Positions 1-42,856 of a stretch of 42,856 nt of DNA are shown one piece after another. The translations under genes and the position numbers were made by a program. Numbering within the stretch: position 1 is the stretch's first letter; every line of letters begins with the position of its first letter. The notes under the pieces are model-generated. The model did no database searches. It was not told where the DNA came from and saw only the letters and a list, made by a program, of their open reading frames with translations. The stretch is from a virus: the IMG/VR virus record IMGVR_UViG_3300031746_000051, positions 1-42,856 of that record; one strand, given 5' to 3'.

Positions 1-238
1 TATCCATGATAGTCGCGGCAGGAACAGGCTTGGATGGTCCAGATTTTTCCATGATTTGCCCATCCACGACCTCGTGATGAACATCACTGATAGCCTGCCA
101 TTGATCCTTTGATACTTCCATACATTCATCATCTACTGATGACCGTTGTTTGTCCGCCAATGATTTTGAGCAACGTACCCGTTTCTTGATCTTGCCGGTG
201 TTCTCTTCGTATATGATGTAGTAACTCATATCTCTCAC
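1..238 (-). CDS. Partial second copy of the 108-aa tail-region protein
   Basis: This is the N-terminal 79 codons of the gene annotated in full at 42515-42841, repeated because the contig ends overlap. It starts with GTG at 238 and shares GTGA with the stop of the upstream gene at 235-237, a usual sign of translational coupling. It should be counted once after circularising. Confidence 0.85.
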   Translation of the reverse strand, partial: MRDMSYYIIYEENTGKIKKRVRCSKSLADKQRSSVDDECMEVSKDQWQAISDVHHEVVDGQIMEKSGPSKPVPAATIMD

Positions 239-253
239 TTCCCAACGTGTTCG
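1..253. repeat. Left copy of the 253-bp terminal overlap
   Basis: These bases recur at the right end of the window with one difference: position 127 is C, its partner 42730 is G. The overlap shows that the contig closes on itself, either as a circular replicative form or as a circularly permuted packaged genome. It falls inside a coding gene, so it is not a dedicated terminal repeat with its own features. Confidence 0.95.
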
Positions 254-3515: not shown

Positions 3516-6146
3516 TCAGGCTTGATGGCCCGCAATCAGCTCCCGCATCTTGCCTCCTCGATGATAGTCATCGGCGATGACCTCGATCACCCACTGGCGG
3601 CCATTGAATTTTGGGGCCGCCTCCTGCCTCAAGGCTGTACCACTGTTGTTGATGATGATCGTAGGAGCCGACATGCCCGCGGGGGCCGACACGCCCACAC
3701 CGGCTGGGAGCACAGTCTCGCCTCGCTCCAGGATGGCAGGATACTCGCTCGGCGCCAATCCCTCATGCAATCTGGGCGCTCCCTCAAACAACCAGGCCGA
3801 CACCGAACGATGAACTCGACCCTCCCCGACTACGCCGCCGCTATGAAACACGCCGCCGAGGTATGATCTTCCCGCTTCGCTTCCACCACCACTTTTCCCA
3901 CCGCCGAATATACCCCCGAATATGCCGCTAACAGCCGTTGTCAAAGATGGAGCCAGACTTTCCGATATCGGTCTTATCGCTTGTATCCTCATTATATCCA
4001 TCGCAATTTGTTGAAAGAGCGATTGCATTACATCGCCGAACTTGCCCCCTTCGAACAGGATCTGCTCGAACGCCCCGGCAAATGCATCTTCCATGCCGCG
4101 TGCCACCTCCATCCAGCGCTGGGCCATCTCGAGCTGCTCGATGCGCATGTCGAACTGCTCCATGGCCGCGGCGGCTTCTAACGTGCCTTCACCGTAACGG
4201 ATGGCTGCCATGCGGGCAAACTCGGTGCGATCCCGTGCGTGCTCCCACGACTGGCCGATGCGCCCCACCATCTCGATCTCGCTGATCATCCGCTGGTTCA
4301 TCTCGTCCATAGCGGTAATGGCGTCCCGCCGCTTCTGAACCTGGTCAAGCTCTTTGAGTTGGGCGGCATACGCACCAGTCATTTCAATTGATTCGGGAGT
4401 ACCTTTGCCACGAGCTTTTTCAGCCCATCCATGAAACTTGACAATCTTCTCGGTATTCGGCCCGAACTGCTCATACTGCTTAGCAACCTCCAACTCCTCC
4501 TGGAGAGCGTCGGTCATCTTCCTGATCTCGAGTTCCGCATTTTTCGCATCCACACTGTCTAATGCTTCCTGATAATGATTCATCATGTCTGTGGTCTGAT
4601 TGATCGCCTCACCACAAAGCGATTCTATCTGGATCATCATCTGAGCCTGTTCGACAGATTTTGCCCTACCGGCGATGACCAAATCGAGGGCCTGAGCCTC
4701 CGCCTCCAACTTGGCGATCACCTCATTGACCTGCTTGACCTGCTCGGCGCGATTAAGATCATCAAGAGTTTTCCCATATTCGGCAATCTTATCGATCGAT
4801 ATCTGCGTTTTGGCGCCGCATGCCTGCTCGATCGCTATCATCGCTTCGGCCAGTTTGATAGATCCGGCCCTGCCTGAATTGACCATATCGAGGACTTCAA
4901 CCTGCCGCTTTATCGAATCGGTCAGCTTATCAACAGCATCAGATTGCTCTATATCAACAACTCCGGCATAACCAGGACCTCCACCGATCCTCATATTACC
5001 CAATTTGGATTCTTCAAGTTGTCCCGCAGCGGTCTCGATCCGGATGTCCCTATAGAATTTTGCAAAGATTTCGTGAATGTCTCTTTCTTTCGGCAAGAAT
5101 CCTTTGTCAACAGCAGTACTCTTCAATAGCTTATCGTAGAGCAATTTGTCTTTTGGTTCTTGCGGTAATTTACCGCCCAAAAAACCCTTAACAGGTACCC
5201 TCTCAAAAGCAAATAGATCTTTGTCTCCCATTATCATCTTGTATTGTTCTTGTGCAGATTTCTCCGTCTCATGGACGTTCTTCTCGGTCTCAAGCGGACT
5301 GATGACTCTTCCTGTTGCTCTTATAATGCCATCTATCGCCTCAGCAACCGCCATGATGCTCTCGGTTACAACCTCCATCACCTTTACCATGCGGACGCCC
5401 ATACCTTCGCCTGACATGGCTGCCTCGTTAAACCGCGTCGCCAGAACCTCTACCACCGGGGCCATTTGGATCAAGGCCTTTTGCCATATCCCTTTGAAGA
5501 CCACGCCCATCCGCTCGAGGGCATCATTCGCCGCCTCGACCTGGGCGGCATCGAAACGACTGAACGTACCACCGAGCAATTCAAGCTCGCGTTGAGATTT
5601 CCGAATGCCTGCTGAACCCTCCGCAAGGAAGTTGGCCATTTCTCGACTCGATCGTCCGAAGAGCTTGTTGGCAACCGCAGCCTTGTCGGCTTGAGTGCTC
5701 AGTTTTGACATCCGGTCCGACACCAGGCCCAGGGCCTCGCTGGGGCTGAGCATAACCAGGTCGTTGGCGCTGAGGCCGAGTAGCTTGAGGGCATCCTTGG
5801 CCTCTCCGGTGCCCATGCGGACCTCGCCCAGCCGCTGGTTGAATGTCTCCAGGGACTTATTGAGCGTCTCGGTGCCGACACCTGCCAACTTGGCCCCGTA
5901 CTGAAGGCCGAGCAGATCTTCCGTAGCGATGCCCAGGCGATCCGAGAGTTTGGCCGTCGCATCGATGGCGTTCATGGTCGATTTAATCATGTAGGTAAGG
6001 CCACCTACGCCGGCCAGTGCCATGGCCCCGCCGACCAGCGACTTCAGGCTGCTGGTCGTCTTGCCGACAATGCCGCTGAAGCTCTGTAGCTCCCTGGAGG
6101 CCCTGTCTCGCACGTACAGTTCGAGCCCGACTTTGGTTTCGCCCAT
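3516..6146 (-). CDS. Tail tape measure protein
   Basis: 876 residues. Sets tail length and is ejected into the cell envelope during infection. An N-terminal hydrophobic stretch (about 35-57, LVGGAMALAGVGGLTYMI) is followed by long coiled-coil helix (alpha-rich, with repeated IxxxEAxxxDLVxxGRAxSxxxAxxMIxIExxCG units around 440-530), and a Gly-rich C-terminus (GIFGGIFGGGKSGGG ... YLGGVFHSGGVVG) as in lambda gpH. At the usual 0.15 nm per residue the tail would be roughly 130 nm, an inference. Lies just after the G/GT chaperone genes, as in most siphoviruses. Confidence 0.93.
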   Translation of the reverse strand: MGETKVGLELYVRDRASRELQSFSGIVGKTTSSLKSLVGGAMALAGVGGLTYMIKSTMNAIDATAKLSDRLGIATEDLLGLQYGAKLAGVGTETLNKSLETFNQRLGEVRMGTGEAKDALKLLGLSANDLVMLSPSEALGLVSDRMSKLSTQADKAAVANKLFGRSSREMANFLAEGSAGIRKSQRELELLGGTFSRFDAAQVEAANDALERMGVVFKGIWQKALIQMAPVVEVLATRFNEAAMSGEGMGVRMVKVMEVVTESIMAVAEAIDGIIRATGRVISPLETEKNVHETEKSAQEQYKMIMGDKDLFAFERVPVKGFLGGKLPQEPKDKLLYDKLLKSTAVDKGFLPKERDIHEIFAKFYRDIRIETAAGQLEESKLGNMRIGGGPGYAGVVDIEQSDAVDKLTDSIKRQVEVLDMVNSGRAGSIKLAEAMIAIEQACGAKTQISIDKIAEYGKTLDDLNRAEQVKQVNEVIAKLEAEAQALDLVIAGRAKSVEQAQMMIQIESLCGEAINQTTDMMNHYQEALDSVDAKNAELEIRKMTDALQEELEVAKQYEQFGPNTEKIVKFHGWAEKARGKGTPESIEMTGAYAAQLKELDQVQKRRDAITAMDEMNQRMISEIEMVGRIGQSWEHARDRTEFARMAAIRYGEGTLEAAAAMEQFDMRIEQLEMAQRWMEVARGMEDAFAGAFEQILFEGGKFGDVMQSLFQQIAMDIMRIQAIRPISESLAPSLTTAVSGIFGGIFGGGKSGGGSEAGRSYLGGVFHSGGVVGEGRVHRSVSAWLFEGAPRLHEGLAPSEYPAILERGETVLPAGVGVSAPAGMSAPTIIINNSGTALRQEAAPKFNGRQWVIEVIADDYHRGGKMRELIAGHQA

Positions 6147-12214: not shown

Positions 12215-12451
12215 CTAACGTCGGGATTGTTTGCGGCCATCAGTGCCCTGCTCTACTTCTTCAGGTTCTCCTTTCACTTTGCCGGTTTGTTTGCCAGCGT
12301 CAGTCGAATCAGGTGTCACGCCGGTTTGCTTCGTGTCTTTGATGGATGGTGAATCGGCGGATAACCAGGTTCCGCACCGACGACAGCGCTTGCGCTTGTC
12401 CGACGTCACCACTCGAACGGTACCACATTGCGAACATGTTACTCGTGCCAT
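12215..12451 (-). CDS. Small zinc-ribbon protein of the head module
   Basis: 78 residues, start ATG 12451 with AAGGA six bases upstream. Cys pairs CSQC (6-9) and CRRC (23-26) form a treble-clef or zinc-ribbon knuckle; the rest (about 30-78) is charged and disordered (Lys, Glu, Thr, Asp). No known family. It lies between the scaffold and the decoration genes. Confidence 0.7.
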   Translation of the reverse strand: MARVTCSQCGTVRVVTSDKRKRCRRCGTWLSADSPSIKDTKQTGVTPDSTDAGKQTGKVKGEPEEVEQGTDGRKQSRR

Positions 12452-12528
12452 ACTATTCCTTGCCCTCTCTCATCTTCTGGTCTGCCTCTGGATGCAAGTT
12501 GATACAAGCGTCGACCGCCTGATCCCTA

Positions 12529-13011
12529 TTATTCTTTGCCGTCTCTCATCTTCTGGTGTGCATCGGGGTACAGAGTGGCACAAACCTCGACCGCCTGAGC
12601 CCTTGAGCACTTATGCTCTGCAGCATGTTCCGTAACCAGGGTCATAAACGGTTTGGTCTTCTGCACCGCCGATTCCCGTTCCTTCTGTTTCTGCTCGCTG
12701 TCGCTGAATTCCTGATAAGCTGGGTCTGGAACAGTTGATCCTTTCGCCTTACTCATCTTGTCCTGGAGTTGCTTATTTTCATTTTCAAGCTTGGCAAGAC
12801 GCTGCTCGAGGGCCTGCTGGGAAGTCTGATTCTGCTTATAGCAATTGACGAGCAGTGCAGAATCGTCACCACAGGCCTTTTCGAGGTCGGCAAAGGATTG
12901 CCGCTCCATCTCATGGCCTTCATTGCGGGCCTGCTCGACGATTACCGAATAGATCTCAGGGTACTGCTCGGCAAAGGTCTCTACTGTAAATTGTTCTGTT
13001 TCTTTGCCCAT
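12529..13011 (-). CDS. Nested scaffold protein (internal in-frame start)
   Basis: An internal ATG at 13011 (codon 293 of the protease gene) follows AAGGAG with a nine-base gap, a better ribosome site than most in this genome. It would yield a free 160-residue scaffold, MGKETEQFTVETFAEQ to RDGKE, with a coiled-coil at ALEQRLAKLENENKQLQDKM. Lambda C/Nu3 has the same nested arrangement. Confidence 0.75.
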   Translation of the reverse strand: MGKETEQFTVETFAEQYPEIYSVIVEQARNEGHEMERQSFADLEKACGDDSALLVNCYKQNQTSQQALEQRLAKLENENKQLQDKMSKAKGSTVPDPAYQEFSDSEQKQKERESAVQKTKPFMTLVTEHAAEHKCSRAQAVEVCATLYPDAHQKMRDGKE

Positions 13012-15983: not shown

Positions 15984-17350
15984 GTCGCCACCTCCTGAGT
16001 TTGCGTATTGGCGTCTTCCGATATCACCTGGGTCGTAGCGACAGAACCATCATCTTTGTAGCACTTCAGGGTTCCATCCGTCTTACTGATCACAGCCTTT
16101 TTGAAAGATCGCCGCCAATCTTGAACGCTCATCTCCCGGAAATTCGACGCCACACCCACTGGTTCGGTGATCGAAATTGAATCCAATCCATCGGCGGCCA
16201 GTTTGACCTTCCCACTACTCACCGTGATCGCTGACCCGTCGCTGGTTCTTGCAACAGCCGTGGCCGCGGCGTCCGCCTGCTTCAACGGGAACGCCGTTGT
16301 TTCATCGAACTTTGCCGCTGTGATCGCATCATCGGCGAGCGTCATCGCACTGCCAACCGCCGCCGGACTGGCTGGCAGATTATCCGTCTTGGCTTTTATG
16401 GCCGCTACCTCCGTATCGAGGTACCCTGCTATGGTCGCCAGTTGTGCATCAATGTCCGAGTCATCAGCGGGATCTGCCGGCAGGTTGTCGGTCTTGGCCT
16501 TTATGGCCGCTACCTCTGTATCGAGATATCCTGCTATGGTCGCCAGTTGTGCATCGATGTCCGAATCGTCGGCGGGATCCGCTGGCAGGTTGTCCGTCTT
16601 GGCCTTTATAGCTGCCGTATCTACCTTGACTGCCGCCACATCTGTATGGATGTCAGCCAACCCGCCAGCCGCATCGTCAAGTAGGTCAATACAGGTCCTT
16701 TCAGTGGCTCCATAATCAGCGGTGATATGACCATCAATCGTTCCGACGTGGACGTGGACGGCTGCAACATCAGTAGCGATTCCATCAACTACTGTGTCCA
16801 CGGTTGCCACCGGTGCATTGAGGTTATCGGTTATGAGCTTGGCGGCACTGTTGGCTACGGCGTGACCTGTATTTACTACTTCGTCCCAGATGGCATCCAC
16901 GCCGGCGGCAGAAAGGGCGGGTGTCGCCGCATTGAGACTTGTCTTCTGCAATGCGCCAAAGTCTATATTCGCCTGCTCGGCAACAGCAACGTCGAGTTTA
17001 TCCGTCCCCATCAAAGAATCATAGACGTTGGCGGGAAGAACCATATAGTCATCCCACACTGGAAGGAATGTGGCCGCCTCCGCCATCATTACCCGCAGTA
17101 TTCCCACAGTGTTCATATCAGTAGCATCTAATGTGACTTTGAACATGCCGTAAGCATCGAGAACACTCGCCGTTACCGTTTGGTGTCTAATGGCGCCCGC
17201 AGCACCATTCTTGCTTAGGAATATGCCGGTTGTGGCGTGATCTATCGAGGTTATGATACCAGTCCCAATTTCGAGAGAAACACCATCCGTTTTGTCCAGA
17301 AACGGCCCGAACATTATGGTACACGCAGTACTCTGTTTCAAAACCTTCAT
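15980..17350 (-). CDS. Virion fibre-like protein with 35-residue repeats
   Basis: 456 residues, low in aromatic residues. The N-terminal ~110 residues look like a beta domain (VSLEIGTGIITSIDHATTGIFLSKN ... VLDAYGMFKVTLDATDMNTVGILRVMMAEAATFLPVWDDYMVLP), a pattern seen in phage proteins of unknown role. The middle carries repeats of the form AAIKAKTDNLPADPADDSDI then DAQLATIAGYLDTEV (about 2.5 units of 35). The C-terminal part contains KVKLAADGLDSISITEP and WRRSFKKAVISKTDGTLKCYKDDGSVATTQ, a common C-terminal tag of such proteins. Likely a fibre or spike; position upstream of the portal makes a head location possible. Function is inference. Confidence 0.75.
   Translation of the reverse strand: MKVLKQSTACTIMFGPFLDKTDGVSLEIGTGIITSIDHATTGIFLSKNGAAGAIRHQTVTASVLDAYGMFKVTLDATDMNTVGILRVMMAEAATFLPVWDDYMVLPANVYDSLMGTDKLDVAVAEQANIDFGALQKTSLNAATPALSAAGVDAIWDEVVNTGHAVANSAAKLITDNLNAPVATVDTVVDGIATDVAAVHVHVGTIDGHITADYGATERTCIDLLDDAAGGLADIHTDVAAVKVDTAAIKAKTDNLPADPADDSDIDAQLATIAGYLDTEVAAIKAKTDNLPADPADDSDIDAQLATIAGYLDTEVAAIKAKTDNLPASPAAVGSAMTLADDAITAAKFDETTAFPLKQADAAATAVARTSDGSAITVSSGKVKLAADGLDSISITEPVGVASNFREMSVQDWRRSFKKAVISKTDGTLKCYKDDGSVATTQVISEDANTQTQEVAT
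16377..16615 (-). repeat. 105-bp tandem DNA repeat in the fibre-like gene
   Basis: Two complete and one partial 105-bp units encode 35 residues each (TEVAAIKAKTDNLPADPADD then SDIDAQLATIAGYLD). Units differ mainly at third codon positions. Copy number could vary by slippage or recombination. Confidence 0.85.
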
Positions 17351-23601: not shown

Positions 23602-23686
23602 GTCTTGTCATGTCTTGTCGCGTCAAGTCATGTCTGGTCGCGTCGCGTCATGTCCTATCACGTCGTGTCAGGTTCAGTCGCGTCGC
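23602..23686 (+). repeat. GTCNN array 1 (17 units)
   Basis: Strict 5-bp period of GTC followed by two variable bases; 15 units have GTC, one has ATC (23657) and one GTT (23672). Preceded by AAAAAG and followed by GTGTAAGATTCTTC. The array ends six bases before the terS ATG, so it forms the leader of the terS mRNA if transcribed from upstream. Confidence 0.93.
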
Positions 23687-23697
23687 GTGTAAGATTC

Positions 23698-23723
23698 TTC
23701 CCTTAGGGATGGCTAACGCTGTC
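23698..23723 (+). repeat. GMAYA element in the array 1-2 spacer
   Basis: CTTAGGG-type copy with a modified end (GGCTAACGCTG). The 23 bases 23701-23723 are absent from the otherwise matching spacer between arrays 4 and 5. Confidence 0.85.
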
Positions 23724-23741
23724 ATTCGTTCGCGGCGGCAC

Positions 23742-23765
23742 TCCGCTTGGGGATGGCTTACGCCA
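23742..23765 (+). repeat. GMAYA element, second in the array 1-2 spacer
   Basis: Exact consensus copy. The 24 bases are absent at the matching place in the array 4-5 spacer, where GGCGGCAC joins ATTGTCACCC directly. Confidence 0.9.
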
Positions 23766-23791
23766 ATTGTCACCCGTTCTTGTTGAAAAAG

Positions 23792-23871
23792 GTCTTGTCA
23801 TGTCGGGTCTTGTCATGTCCCGTCGAGTCTGGTCTCGTCAAGTCCAGTCAGGTCTGGTCGAGTCCGGTCGC
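23792..23871 (+). repeat. GTCNN array 2 (16 units)
   Basis: Sixteen units, all with GTC, no two neighbouring units alike. Begins GTCTT GTCAT like arrays 1, 3 and 4, after GTTGAAAAAG; ends GTCGC GTGTAAGAGTCTT. Confidence 0.93.
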
Positions 23872-23929
23872 GTGTAAGAGTCTTTATCCTCTGGCGGCGG
23901 CACATTGTCACCTGGTCTTGTTGAAAAAG

Positions 23930-24024
23930 GTCTTGTCATGTCTTGTCAGGTCTTGTCTTGTCATGTCTTGTCATGTCGCGTCCGGTCGGGTCTTGTCAAG
24001 TCTCGTCTTGTCTGGTCGGGTCTT
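23930..24024 (+). repeat. GTCNN array 3 (19 units)
   Basis: Nineteen units, all with GTC, the longest array; rich in the TT dinucleotide (8 of 19). It runs into the 3' end of the 62-aa gene on the minus strand, whose last residues (DPTRQDET) and stop codon it encodes. It lacks the GTGTAAGA trailer. Confidence 0.93.
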
Positions 24025-24505: not shown

Positions 24506-25849
24506 CTAAACGGCATTAGCACGCACGGTCGGCCGGTCTCGTGGTTTTATCCGCCGTCGCAGGTCGGCGGCCAGATTGTCGAAGGTCTTGCGCATGTACG
24601 CCTGCGAGTTGCTGTTCCCCGACCGTGCAGAACCGATTCGAGTCGCCCGCTTGAGCAACTCCCGATCGAACCAAGTCATCGCCTCTGAGCCGAAACCCTC
24701 AGCCAGAAGGTCGTGATAGGCCCGGGCGAAGTTCGCTCGTTCACGTTGCATCTCGGCTTGCGAGGACGAATGAAAACCAACCGCCGCCAATATCCTCTCC
24801 GCCATGTCTTTCGCTGCAGGGTCGTAGCGGAACATGGCCGACTGAATCACGTCACCAAGTCTTGCACAGTTGGTGGTTTGCCTGGTTGGAGCACGAACTG
24901 ACCCACCTTGCGATGGTGGTGCGTGCGCGTGTGTTTGCCGGTCAAAGGCGATTCGATGGGGAGCATCAGCGTGTAGCGACGTATGGGGAGTTACCGGCCC
25001 CTGCTTTGGCTTTCGCTCCCCTGCGTCGGTTCTCGTCGGCGAAGTCGACGTCGGCGTTGGCGGGGTGGTGGTCGGGGAGGGATTGCGTTTAGCAATCCCG
25101 GTGGAGGCTGATTCGGATTTGAACCGCGCTGTTTGAGCCCCTTTATCTATCGAACGATTACTAACCATTCCCCTTTGTCGACGTCGACTATTTCTTTCTT
25201 TCTTCTTTCCAACTTTTACTTTGGTTCCTTTAGTTACTTTGGTTCCTTTAGTTACTTGGTTCCTTGGTTCCTTTATTTGCCGACTTCCGCGGCGCGCGTG
25301 CGCGCGCGCCCGCGTTCTAGTAAAGGGTTTCCGCCCGGTTCCGCCCGGTTCCGCCCGGTTCCGCCCGCGGGCGGAAAAATGTCTATCCTTTATATCCACA
25401 TTGTCCGGTATCTTATTCTTGTCCAAATCAAAGATAGGCAATCGCACTTGCTCTAAAAGCTTAGCTGATGCCAACTTACGCATAATCGTCGGCATCTTTC
25501 GCCGATCAACATGTAGAAGGGCAGCAATCTGTGAATCATTGAGGGGTTCATTATCGATGTCGAGCAGAAATCCACGATATGCCCGCGACCTCTTGGCCGA
25601 CATGTTGACCAGCAAACGATAGATGCCATACAATTGAGCAAACTCAAGACCGTCCCCGTTCGACAACATGTTCATCTGATGATGATAGCTGACTGCCTCA
25701 TCACCACCTGAGTCGCCAACAAAGTCTCGCGTATATTCCAGACTCGACATGCGACATTTCCGCATATCGTCAGGTAGCTCATAGCGCTCTTGGAAATGAT
25801 AAATCCGCCAGACCTTCCTTGTTATCCGTCGCTTCCTTGCAGCCTTCAT
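24506..25849 (-). CDS. Replication initiator, replisome-organiser-like
   Basis: 447 residues, ATG 25849 with GGGGAGGAGT upstream. The first ~140 residues form a winged helix as in phage replication initiators (GLEFAQLYGIYRLLVNMS ... RGFLLDIDNEPLNDSQIAAL then LHVDRRKMPTIMRKLASAKLLEQV). Residues ~155-330 are low-complexity and basic (Arg, Lys, Pro, Thr, Ser), with a VTKGTKVTKGTK repeat. The C-terminal ~110 residues are helical (FARAYHDLLAEGFGSEAMTW). Expected role: bind the origin and load the host helicase. Assignment rests on the N-terminal fold and neighbours. Confidence 0.65.
   Translation of the reverse strand: MKAARKRRITRKVWRIYHFQERYELPDDMRKCRMSSLEYTRDFVGDSGGDEAVSYHHQMNMLSNGDGLEFAQLYGIYRLLVNMSAKRSRAYRGFLLDIDNEPLNDSQIAALLHVDRRKMPTIMRKLASAKLLEQVRLPIFDLDKNKIPDNVDIKDRHFSARGRNRAEPGGTGRKPFTRTRARAHARRGSRQIKEPRNQVTKGTKVTKGTKVKVGKKKERNSRRRQRGMVSNRSIDKGAQTARFKSESASTGIAKRNPSPTTTPPTPTSTSPTRTDAGERKPKQGPVTPHTSLHADAPHRIAFDRQTHAHAPPSQGGSVRAPTRQTTNCARLGDVIQSAMFRYDPAAKDMAERILAAVGFHSSSQAEMQRERANFARAYHDLLAEGFGSEAMTWFDRELLKRATRIGSARSGNSNSQAYMRKTFDNLAADLRRRIKPRDRPTVRANAV
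25329..25376. repeat. 10-bp tandem repeat ending in an 18-bp palindrome
   Basis: Three TTCCGCCCGG units followed by the perfect palindrome TTCCGCCCG CGGGCGGAA (25359-25376), inside the low-complexity linker of the initiator gene. Phage origins often lie within the initiator gene as such repeats; that role is inference. Confidence 0.8.
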
Positions 25850-25855
25850 ACGCTT

Positions 25856-26245
25856 TTACTCCTCCCCGGATTCGTTATCATCAAACTCCATCTGCTTTTC
25901 ATCGTCAGACAAGGGTCTCTCCTCCACAACCTGGCCAGTATCCGTACGTACCAGAACCATCTGTCCCTTCGTGTAGTTGGTGATCCTGTTACACTCGATG
26001 CTTCGCTGCTCTTCCCCTATCAGTACGGAAGAACCAAGATAGGCAATTTTCCTCTTCAAACCATCACACTTAGTCTTGAAGCTTGAATTGACCACCTTTC
26101 TCTCTTTCTCGATACCCTCTAATTCAGACAACGTCTTGGCCAGTGAGTTGGCTGCGACCCTTCGTTCTTCGTCAGTAAGTGCGTGAGAGAATGGATGCCA
26201 TTCCTTCGCTTCTTTGATTTGATCAACTTTCTGTTTCTTCGCCAT
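25856..26245 (-). CDS. Early protein with central helical region
   Basis: 129 residues from ATG 26245 with AAAGGAAC upstream (frame open to 26263). MAKKQKVDQIKEAKEWHPFS, HALTDEERRVAANSLAKTLSELEGIEKERKVV, then a strand-rich part (GLKRKIAYLGSSVLIGEEQR ... TKGQMVLVRTDTGQVVEERPL) and an acidic end. Unknown family. Cotranscribed with the replication initiator (6-bp gap). GTCNN arrays 4 and 5 lie upstream. Confidence 0.7.
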   Translation of the reverse strand: MAKKQKVDQIKEAKEWHPFSHALTDEERRVAANSLAKTLSELEGIEKERKVVNSSFKTKCDGLKRKIAYLGSSVLIGEEQRSIECNRITNYTKGQMVLVRTDTGQVVEERPLSDDEKQMEFDDNESGEE

Positions 26246-26311
26246 TGTGTGTTCCTTTATCAAAAAAGATGTTTGTGTCTTCAGGGTCCCATCCTTGCTT
26301 TTGAAAAAAAG

Positions 26312-26396
26312 GTCTTGTCATGTCTTGTCAGGTCAGGTCGCGTCACGTCAAGTCAAGTCGCGTCAGGTCGGGTCTCGTCGGGTCGTGTCGTGTCGC
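26312..26396 (+). repeat. GTCNN array 4 (17 units)
   Basis: Seventeen units, all with GTC. Begins GTCTT GTCAT GTCTT after a run of A and ends GTCGC GTGTAAGATTCTTC exactly as array 1. Sits 67 bp upstream of the 129-aa early gene. Confidence 0.93.
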
Positions 26397-26455
26397 GTGT
26401 AAGATTCTTCATTCGTTCGCGGCGGCACATTGTCACCCGTTTCGGTCTTAAAAAG

Positions 26456-26535
26456 GTCTTGTCGTGTCTTGTCATGTCACGTCATGTCTTGTCAGGTCCG
26501 GTCACGTCTTGTCAAGTCTGGTCATGTCGTGTCGT
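26456..26535 (+). repeat. GTCNN array 5 (16 units)
   Basis: Sixteen units, all with GTC; second unit GTCGT instead of GTCAT. Preceded by TTAAAAAG. Ends in TTTTAG without the GTGTAAGA trailer, like array 3 at the other locus, so in each locus the last array is the one without a trailer. Confidence 0.93.
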
Positions 26536-34202: not shown

Positions 34203-34243
34203 TGGCGTAAGCCATCCCCTGGCATAAGCCATCCCAAAGCGGA
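34203..34243 (-). repeat. Truncated plus complete GMAYA element in tandem
   Basis: A 17-base truncated copy (34203-34219, TGGCGTAAGCCATCCCC) runs directly into a complete 24-bp copy (34220-34243). This looks like one copy inserted into the end of another, or slippage. Confidence 0.8.
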
Positions 34244-35827: not shown

Positions 35828-36103
35828 TTATTCCAGTCCCAATCGTTTGTCATATTCGGATAGAGCCGCTTCGGCGAATTGACATAGCGCAAGGAACTCC
35901 TGCTCATCAGTAACTGGTTCATCATACCAGACAAATCGACTGAAAGTTTGATCAGATCGGCAACTATATTCGATCTCGCCAATCACGGGCGAATCTTCAT
36001 CAAACACTTCGCAAATAAATACTGGATGCTGGCTGTGAATTATGTAAGTGCGTGAGCCTGTTTCATTCTCCCCTATGAGCCACTCGTCAATTCGCGGTAA
36101 CAT
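35828..36103 (-). CDS. Small acidic protein, unknown
   Basis: 91 residues, overlapping the preceding gene by 17 bp. MLPRIDEWLIGENETGSRTY then IIHSQHPVFICEVFDEDSPV ... FSRFVWYDEPVTDEQEFLAL ... AEAALSEYDKRLGLE. Looks folded (alternating strands then helix). No family recognised. Second gene behind attenuator leader 1. Confidence 0.65.
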   Translation of the reverse strand: MLPRIDEWLIGENETGSRTYIIHSQHPVFICEVFDEDSPVIGEIEYSCRSDQTFSRFVWYDEPVTDEQEFLALCQFAEAALSEYDKRLGLE

Positions 36104-36680
36104 TTTGCACCTCCACCGGCTTATATTTGAGACCGTGACCCCCCTCTTTGTAAAGATTCATCCAACCACAGTTGACGTATTGATATACTTCAGCCCACTT
36201 GCTCTGTTTCTTTTTGCGGAGAATGTTGCCCTGATGCTCAAATTCAAACATTGCACCACCTTTATCAAGTACATCGGTGAAACATTCGTATTCACAGGCC
36301 TGTGGATGATTGCGGGTACCTGACCATTCAACCCATCTAACTCTGCAATTATGGTATATCTTAGTCGCCTTTGCGACTGCTTTAATGGATCTTTGACGCA
36401 TCAGAACAAGTTCTTCGGCAGTCTCATAAACTGATTCGTCAATTCCATCGCCGCCAATTTCAAATTCGCCCGCCAAAATCGCAAGGTGGGGACGAATGTC
36501 AAAGAAGTCAGTTACGTTATAATGACAACTTGTGTGGTGCCATTCAGCGGGCGATAAGGTTTCTCTCAATGCCTTAACTGTCACTTTCAACACCTTCGCC
36601 GCCTTGCTCGCCGGCAACAAACCACAGTGATATGCTTCAATTGCGTTATTGCTCATCGCGTAATTGCTATACCCACTCAT
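36087..36680 (-). CDS. SGYSNYAMSNNA-type phage protein
   Basis: 197 residues, ATG 36680 with AGGAGG. The opening MSGYSNYAMSNNAIEAYHCG is shared with a group of phage proteins of unknown function. A helix-turn-helix-like LLPASKAAKVLKVTVKALRE follows, then a strand-rich half with conserved-looking Cys and Trp (YHNCRVRWVEWSGTRNHPQA, CEYECFTDV). Its expression is expected to depend on the leader and terminator unit just upstream. Confidence 0.72.
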   Translation of the reverse strand: MSGYSNYAMSNNAIEAYHCGLLPASKAAKVLKVTVKALRETLSPAEWHHTSCHYNVTDFFDIRPHLAILAGEFEIGGDGIDESVYETAEELVLMRQRSIKAVAKATKIYHNCRVRWVEWSGTRNHPQACEYECFTDVLDKGGAMFEFEHQGNILRKKKQSKWAEVYQYVNCGWMNLYKEGGHGLKYKPVEVQNVTAN

Positions 36681-42518: not shown

Positions 42519-42841
42519 TTTTTATCCTTGGACGATTTCTCGAGGGCCTCGATGCGGGCAACCAAATTCGACCAGACCTTCCGTGTGATCGTCATCTTGG
42601 GGTTATCCATGATAGTCGCGGCAGGAACAGGCTTGGATGGTCCAGATTTTTCCATGATTTGCCCATCCACGACCTCGTGATGAACATCACTGATAGCCTG
42701 CCATTGATCCTTTGATACTTCCATACATTGATCATCTACTGATGACCGTTGTTTGTCCGCCAATGATTTTGAGCAACGTACCCGTTTCTTGATCTTGCCG
42801 GTGTTCTCTTCGTATATGATGTAGTAACTCATATCTCTCAC
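42515..42841 (-). CDS. 108-aa tail-region protein (complete copy)
   Basis: Start GTG 42841 overlaps the stop of the preceding paralogue gene as GTGA (seen in the left copy at 235-238); ATG 42832 is the alternative. MSYYIIYEENTGKIKKRVRC, SKSLADKQRSSVDDQCMEVS, KDQWQAISDVHHEVVDGQIM, and a C-terminal helix RKVWSNLVARIEALEKSSKDKK. Stop overlaps the gpJ-like ATG. Function unknown; similar small proteins sit beside phage tail fibres and may be chaperones. Confidence 0.8.
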   Translation of the reverse strand: MRDMSYYIIYEENTGKIKKRVRCSKSLADKQRSSVDDQCMEVSKDQWQAISDVHHEVVDGQIMEKSGPSKPVPAATIMDNPKMTITRKVWSNLVARIEALEKSSKDKK

Positions 42842-42856
42842 TTCCCAACGTGTTCG
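42604..42856. repeat. Right copy of the 253-bp terminal overlap
   Basis: Same sequence as the first 253 bases except G at 42730 in place of C at 127. The difference changes one codon of the 108-residue tail-region gene (Gln here, Glu in the left copy), which suggests a polymorphism in the sampled population or a read error. Confidence 0.95.

What the first reader, a model, noticed from the sequence alone, without database searches (positions are those of the whole stretch)
23602..24024. Arrays of GTCNN: fixed triplet, freely varying dinucleotide, exact 5-bp period (locus A)
Three arrays of 17, 16 and 19 units keep GTC at every fifth base (50 of 52 units exact) while the next two bases vary. 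Ordinary tandem duplication gives identical units; here three positions are held and two are free, which points to selection on GTC spacing, for example by an oligomeric protein bound every half helical turn, or by a repeat RNA. The first unit is always GTCTT and the second GTCAT in all three. Array 1 ends six bases before the terS ATG, a usual place for a pac or cos site. I know of no described element of this form.
Basis: partly seen in the sequence, partly recalled or inferred. Interest (0 to 1): 0.95.

Follow-up and report, generated by a model that had tools for sequence, protein, structure and literature searches.

The report
Phage guide-RNA arrays without their protein
The five-base repeats are very probably guide RNAs of VIPR, a CRISPR-like phage system first reported in 2026, in a variant spelling (GAC) and in an apparently complete phage genome that lacks any recognisable partner protein.

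Summary
Locus A holds arrays of 17, 16 and 19 GTCNN units (50 of 52 exact), and two more (17 and 16 units) lie at 26312-26535. The working strand is minus: (NNGAC)n followed by a constant 3' tail (AAGACCTTTTT...). Such arrays are not unknown. They match vrRNAs of VIPR systems (preprint PMC13142463), in which a Cas7-like RAMP protein, Vipr, reads the NN pairs as a gapped guide against DNA of rival phages. Among IMG/VR records picked only for NN-diverse GTCNN arrays, 42 of 50 encode a Vipr, against 1 of 40 records with low-diversity GTCNN runs. In one pair of near-identical phages the GAC triplets are unchanged while NN differs in 32 of 39 units. Two things depart from the published form: the fixed triplet is GAC rather than GGY (GAC and GGC swap repeatedly on the Vipr tree), and this genome, complete by a 253-bp terminal repeat, has no detectable Vipr or Vap. 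The most likely reading is orphan guide arrays that act in trans with a Vipr supplied by a host or co-resident element. The pac/cos idea is not supported. No target was found for the four arrays searched; expression and trans-action are inferred.

The parts
23602..23686 (-). Array A1: 17 NNGAC units (GTCNN on +), variable tract of a vrRNA-like RNA; its tail overlaps the start of the terS-like ORF
23687..23791 (-). Linker A2 to A1: constant tail AAGACCTTTTT..ACGGGTGACAAT, an inserted GGCGTAAGCCATCCCC-type repeat, and leader AAGAATCTTACACGC
   Evidence: alignment
23792..23871 (-). Array A2: 16 NNGAC units
23872..23929 (-). Linker A3 to A2: constant tail CTTTTTCAACAAGACCAGGTGACAATGTGCCGCCGCC plus leader AAAGACTCTTACACGC
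23930..24024 (-). Array A3: 19 NNGAC units
26312..26396 (-). Array B1: 17 NNGAC units; tail of the same type as A1 (..AGCAAGGATG..)
26397..26455 (-). Linker B2 to B1: constant tail ..CGGGTGACAATGTGCCGCCGC.. plus leader AAGAATCTTACACGC, near-copy of the A3 to A2 linker
26456..26535 (-). Array B2: 16 NNGAC units

Best explanation
The arrays are vrRNA-type guide RNAs of the VIPR kind, transcribed leftwards (minus strand) as (NNGAC)16-19 plus a constant 3' tail. By analogy with the published mechanism, Vipr (RAMP) subunits sit on the RNA one per five bases, GAC marks the register and does not pair, and the NN pairs base-pair with one strand of a DNA target with one base skipped between pairs, silencing genes of competing phages or plasmids. 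This phage carries five guides but no recognisable Vipr or Vap, so its guides most likely load onto a Vipr made by a resident prophage, co-infecting phage or host. Shown: arrays, tail, NN hypervariability in a related pair, association with Vipr in other phages, absence of a detectable Vipr here. Inferred: transcription, use of the skip code by GAC guides, action in trans.
For: 42 of 50 NN-diverse array records encode a Vipr (36 with A3, six more with the divergent profile A5) against 1 of 40 controls; Fisher p = 2e-16. The family flanked by arrays in those phages folds as a Csm3/Cas7-type RAMP: best PDB hits are type VII and III CRISPR subunits, E 2e-7. Its HMM hits the SUSP1 vipr-locus protein at E 1e-14, and the adjacent family hits the SUSP1 vap at 8e-8. 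Same-position arrays around this Vipr family are NNGGC in 23 loci and NNGAC in 13. L248/L249: vipr 5 of 558 nt different, NN different in 32 of 39 units, GAC in 0 of 39. Constant 3' tail and linker shared by both loci of the window. PMC13142463 describes GGY/NN vrRNAs with variable tract and invariant tail.
Against: No Vipr or Vap in the window with any profile tried. Units are GAC, not GGY, and 16-19 per array against 9-16 in the preprint. Tail structure is not more stable than shuffles. No convincing targets: 8-unit skip-1 patterns of A1, A2, A3 and B1 gave 21, 8, 2 and 17 IMG/VR hits whose extensions match only at about chance; one 3-mismatch hit in 294 genomes of one phylum, within chance; no excess for any skip rule in 2.5 Mb of fetched loci. 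Expression unknown.
Confidence: 0.86

Rival explanations
1. The guides work with a Vipr encoded in this genome that is too divergent to recognise, so the system is complete and not orphan.
For: Six of 14 array records negative with the first profile became positive with a divergent one; the preprint reports seven types and says sequence searches fail between RAMPs.
Against: Most mid-size ORFs of the window have other identities: Laminin_G, neck, head-tail adaptor, RuvC, HNH, spanin-like lipoprotein; no G-loop motif in any ORF of 110 aa or more. A few ORFs (36087-36680, 25856-26263, 235-1259) stay unassigned.
Confidence: 0.25
2. DNA-level element: a protein binds double-stranded DNA every half turn through GTC (packaging site, replication iteron or partition site).
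For: Array A1 abuts the terS-like gene; period 5 is half a helical turn; array pair B lies near the replication-initiator-like ORF.
Against: Arrays in unrelated phages follow vipr and vap genes rather than terS; constant tail on one end only; NN turnover far beyond flank divergence is not expected of a DNA-binding array; the triplet switches GGC/GAC within one Vipr family.
Confidence: 0.06
3. Mere microsatellite: slippage products with drifting NN.
For: Low-diversity GTCNN tandem repeats exist in several bacterial genomes.
Against: GTC entropy about 0 against about 1.85 bits at NN; NN differs in 32 of 39 units between near-identical phages while GAC never does; link with Vipr, p = 2e-16.
Confidence: 0.03

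Closest known systems
VIPR vrRNAs (Viral Interference Programmable Repeat; bioRxiv 2026.04.26.720920, PMC13142463)
   Same: Phage-borne, pentanucleotide tandem repeat of fixed triplet plus hypervariable NN, invariant 3' tail, several guides in series with constant linkers; arrays of the same form flank Vipr/Vap genes in other phages
   Different: Fixed triplet GAC instead of GGY; 16-19 units; no Vipr or Vap gene found in this complete genome; no stable tail structure predicted; targets not found
Phage-borne CRISPR mini-arrays without cas genes (from general knowledge)
   Same: A virus carries guides but not the effector, presumably borrowing one to exclude rivals
   Different: No CRISPR repeats or contiguous spacers here; the code is 2 bases in every 5
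Class 1 CRISPR Cas7/Csm3 backbone
   Same: The Vipr family that accompanies such arrays in other phages has this fold
   Different: No Cas7-like gene found in the window

Membership tests
VIPR system | Tandem pentamers of a fixed triplet and hypervariable NN | tested here: met
   83 of 85 triplets exact, NN 1.85 bits; form met, but the triplet is GAC
VIPR system | Triplet is GGY or a related consensus | tested here: inconclusive
   GAC here; in one Vipr family GGC 23 and GAC 13 loci. The preprint's list of related consensuses is in a supplement that could not be read
VIPR system | 9-16 repeats per vrRNA | tested here: inconclusive
   16, 16, 17, 17 and 19 units, slightly longer than the published range
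VIPR system | Invariable 3' tail after the variable tract | tested here: met
   AAGACCTTTTT after all five arrays, and a linker shared by both loci
VIPR system | Conserved secondary structure in the tail (shown for the SUSP1 clade) | tested here: inconclusive
   z 0.21, 1.11 and -0.45; pseudoknots not modelled
VIPR system | vipr gene (RAMP homologue) in the element | tested here: not met
   none in the 42.9-kb record, which has a 253-bp terminal repeat
VIPR system | vap accessory gene | tested here: not met
   the fam2/Vap1-like profile finds nothing in the window; other vap types were not tested
VIPR system | NN string matches DNA of rival elements with a 1-nt skip | tested here: inconclusive
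   no target above chance for A1, A2, A3 or B1; B2 was not searched in the collections; the databases may lack the rivals
VIPR system | vrRNA is transcribed and binds Vipr | not testable with these tools
   needs small-RNA sequencing and pull-down
pac/cos site | Element conserved next to terminase genes in relatives | tested here: not met
   TerL relatives L328-L330 (fragments) have no arrays; arrays elsewhere follow vipr and vap genes

The most novel reading that the evidence does not exclude
Orphan guide arrays: a complete phage genome with an integrase carries five GAC-spelled VIPR guides but no effector and programs a Vipr made by other elements in the cell. The register triplet is exchangeable (GGC/GAC) across the Vipr family, so guide and effector could form separate compatibility groups.
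Probability: 0.5. Interest if true: 0.8.

Novelty: new variant of a known kind. Interest (0 to 1): 0.62.

Why it matters
VIPR is proposed as the precursor of CRISPR. A phage that keeps only guides implies that Vipr can be shared between elements, as with cas-less CRISPR mini-arrays, and makes 'who supplies the effector' a testable question. The GAC form, with repeated GGC/GAC switching on the Vipr tree, gives natural material for finding how Vipr reads the fixed triplet. It also gives a label to an unnamed family (phrog_4652) and to an intergenic feature seen here in dozens of IMG/VR records.

Tried and rejected
Exact tail pattern GAAAAAGGTCTTGTCATGTC in IMG/VR: no other record. TerL relatives: three fragments at about 50% identity, none with arrays. 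Rfam over the window: nothing up to E 5, so no hammerhead ribozyme found. Skip-rule test of 277 arrays against 2.5 Mb of fetched loci: no excess for any skip over shuffled arrays; database too small. Target scans for A1, A2, A3 and B1: chance-level extension. Host assignment by the GGGATGGCTTACGCC repeat: 1 of 99 genomes of the phylum tried, so the host stays unknown. Low-diversity GTCNN runs in bacterial genomes: ordinary microsatellites. GTCNN and NNGGC as literature terms led nowhere; 'pentanucleotide repeats' plus bacteriophage found the VIPR preprint. Near-copies of the window may be hidden by the collection tools.

Full report
Observation. The arrays exist as described and there are five, not three: 23602-23686, 23792-23871, 23930-24024, 26312-26396 and 26456-26535, with 17, 16, 19, 17 and 16 units. 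83 of 85 triplets are exact GTC, while the two following bases carry about 1.85 bits each. No shuffle of the window contains even six consecutive units.

Strand and anatomy. The main genes around the arrays run on the minus strand. Read that way the unit is NNGAC, and every array ends in AAGAC followed by CTTTTT. Between arrays lies a conserved linker, tail AAGACCTTTTT..AAGA.CGGGTGACAATGTGCCGCCGC and leader AAGANTCTTACACGC, shared by locus A and locus B 2.4 kb away; the A2-A1 linker also carries an inserted GGCGTAAGCCATCCCC-type repeat. The plan, variable tract then constant tail, repeated in series, is that of a guide array. The linkers do not fold better than shuffles.

Elsewhere. A scan of IMG/VR for (GTCNN)7GTC gave 119 stretches (list truncated); many have high NN entropy and several arrays per contig. 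The reading frames that follow such arrays cluster into two main families: fam1 (about 187 aa; 19 of 108 ORFs, some counted more than once) and fam2 (about 165 aa; 26 of 108), usually in the order fam1, fam2. Starting from fam1 instead, 80 loci were fetched. Of 63 examined, the best period-5 triplet near the gene is GGC in 23, GAC in 13, other triplets in 8, and none in 19. So the element is NN plus a fixed triplet, mostly GRC.

What fam1 is. An AlphaFold model (pLDDT 86) matches type VII and type III CRISPR Cas7/Csm3 subunits (E 2e-7, probability 1.0). A literature search found PMC13142463: VIPR systems, a phage RAMP called Vipr plus vrRNAs of alternating GGY/NN that recognise dsDNA by the NN bases with a 1-nt skip, repress rival phages, and are reprogrammable. 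I took the SUSP1 locus from its public record (the preprint text gives no accession, so I placed vipr and vap by position and arrays). The fam1 profile hits that protein at E 1e-14 and the fam2 profile hits its neighbour at 8e-8. fam1 is therefore Vipr and fam2 a Vap1-like protein.

Are GTCNN/NNGAC arrays vrRNAs? 50 records chosen only because they hold NN-diverse GTCNN arrays were searched whole: 36 have a Vipr with profile A3 and six more with the divergent profile A5, 42 of 50. Of 40 records with only low-diversity GTCNN runs, 1 has one; 35 of those were also searched with A5, none positive. Fisher p = 2e-16. Caveats: some A3 and A5 members came from these same records, and several records are close relatives of each other, so the p-value overstates the independence.

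Speed of change. L248 and L249 are 99.6% identical over 7.5 kb and differ at 5 of 558 nt in vipr. Read from the 3' end, their two arrays differ at NN in 22 of 26 and 10 of 13 units and at GAC in none. Array lengths differ, so part of this is rearrangement rather than substitution. It is one pair only.

The triplet. On a Vipr tree of 43 sequences the GAC/GGC label needs 8-10 changes (at least 2 forced by well-supported branches), for example L306 (GAC) among L286, L298 and L315 (GGC). The preprint's main text says GGY 'or a related consensus'; whether GAC is listed in its supplement could not be read.

The window has no detectable Vipr. Several profiles, including a divergent set that recovers Viprs missed at first, find nothing, and most other mid-size ORFs have identities. 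The record's first and last 253 bases are identical but for one, so the genome of about 42.6 kb is taken as complete. It also has an integrase, a terminase, a topoisomerase and a DNA ligase. Eight of the 50 array records likewise lack a detected Vipr, but they may be fragments. Orphan guides acting with another element's Vipr is therefore the favoured reading, with a hidden divergent Vipr the main rival. Viprs do occur in cellular genomes: 7 of 294 in the one phylum sampled.

Targets. 8-unit skip-1 patterns from A1, A2, A3 and B1 gave only chance-level extensions in IMG/VR, and a 12-unit pattern with 3 mismatches gave one hit in 294 genomes, within chance by my estimate of roughly one. This neither supports nor refutes, as the host and its rivals are unknown. 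No self-target showed up.

Verdict. VIPR-type guide arrays, a variant in spelling (GAC) and in being effector-less; not a packaging site and not a microsatellite.

Noticed in passing
window 1-253 and 42604-42856: Terminal direct repeat of 253 bp, 252 identical: the record looks like a complete, terminally redundant assembly of about 42.6 kb.
   Followed up: yes
window 25216-25367, inside ORF 24506-25849 (-): Short iteron-like repeats (TTACTTTGGTTCCTTTAG x2.8; TTCCGCCCGG x3.9, perfect) inside a replication-initiator-like ORF; a candidate replication origin.
   Followed up: no
window 23722-23770, 34203-34235 and others: Interspersed GGGATGGCTTACGCC / GGCATAAGCCATCCCC elements, one inserted in the A2-A1 linker and some read into ORFs as GVSHPQA/GMAYAT; rare in the 99 genomes sampled.
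   Followed up: partly
L058, L121, L124 records (G129, G154, G155): Vipr genes with one in-frame TAA inside the matched frame: possibly decayed effectors next to arrays that persist.
   Followed up: no
L247 (Phage DSL-LC04) 3809-4426: A Vipr relative annotated as 'helix-turn-helix transcriptional regulator' in a named phage; phrog_4652 of 'unknown function' matches Vipr.
   Followed up: partly
L107, L120, L091: A third family (phrog_15946, about 150 aa) follows arrays in some phages; it may be another accessory type.
   Followed up: no
window 12447-12603 and 16374-16609: 76-bp and 105-bp tandem repeats, the second at 89% matches, near head genes.
   Followed up: no
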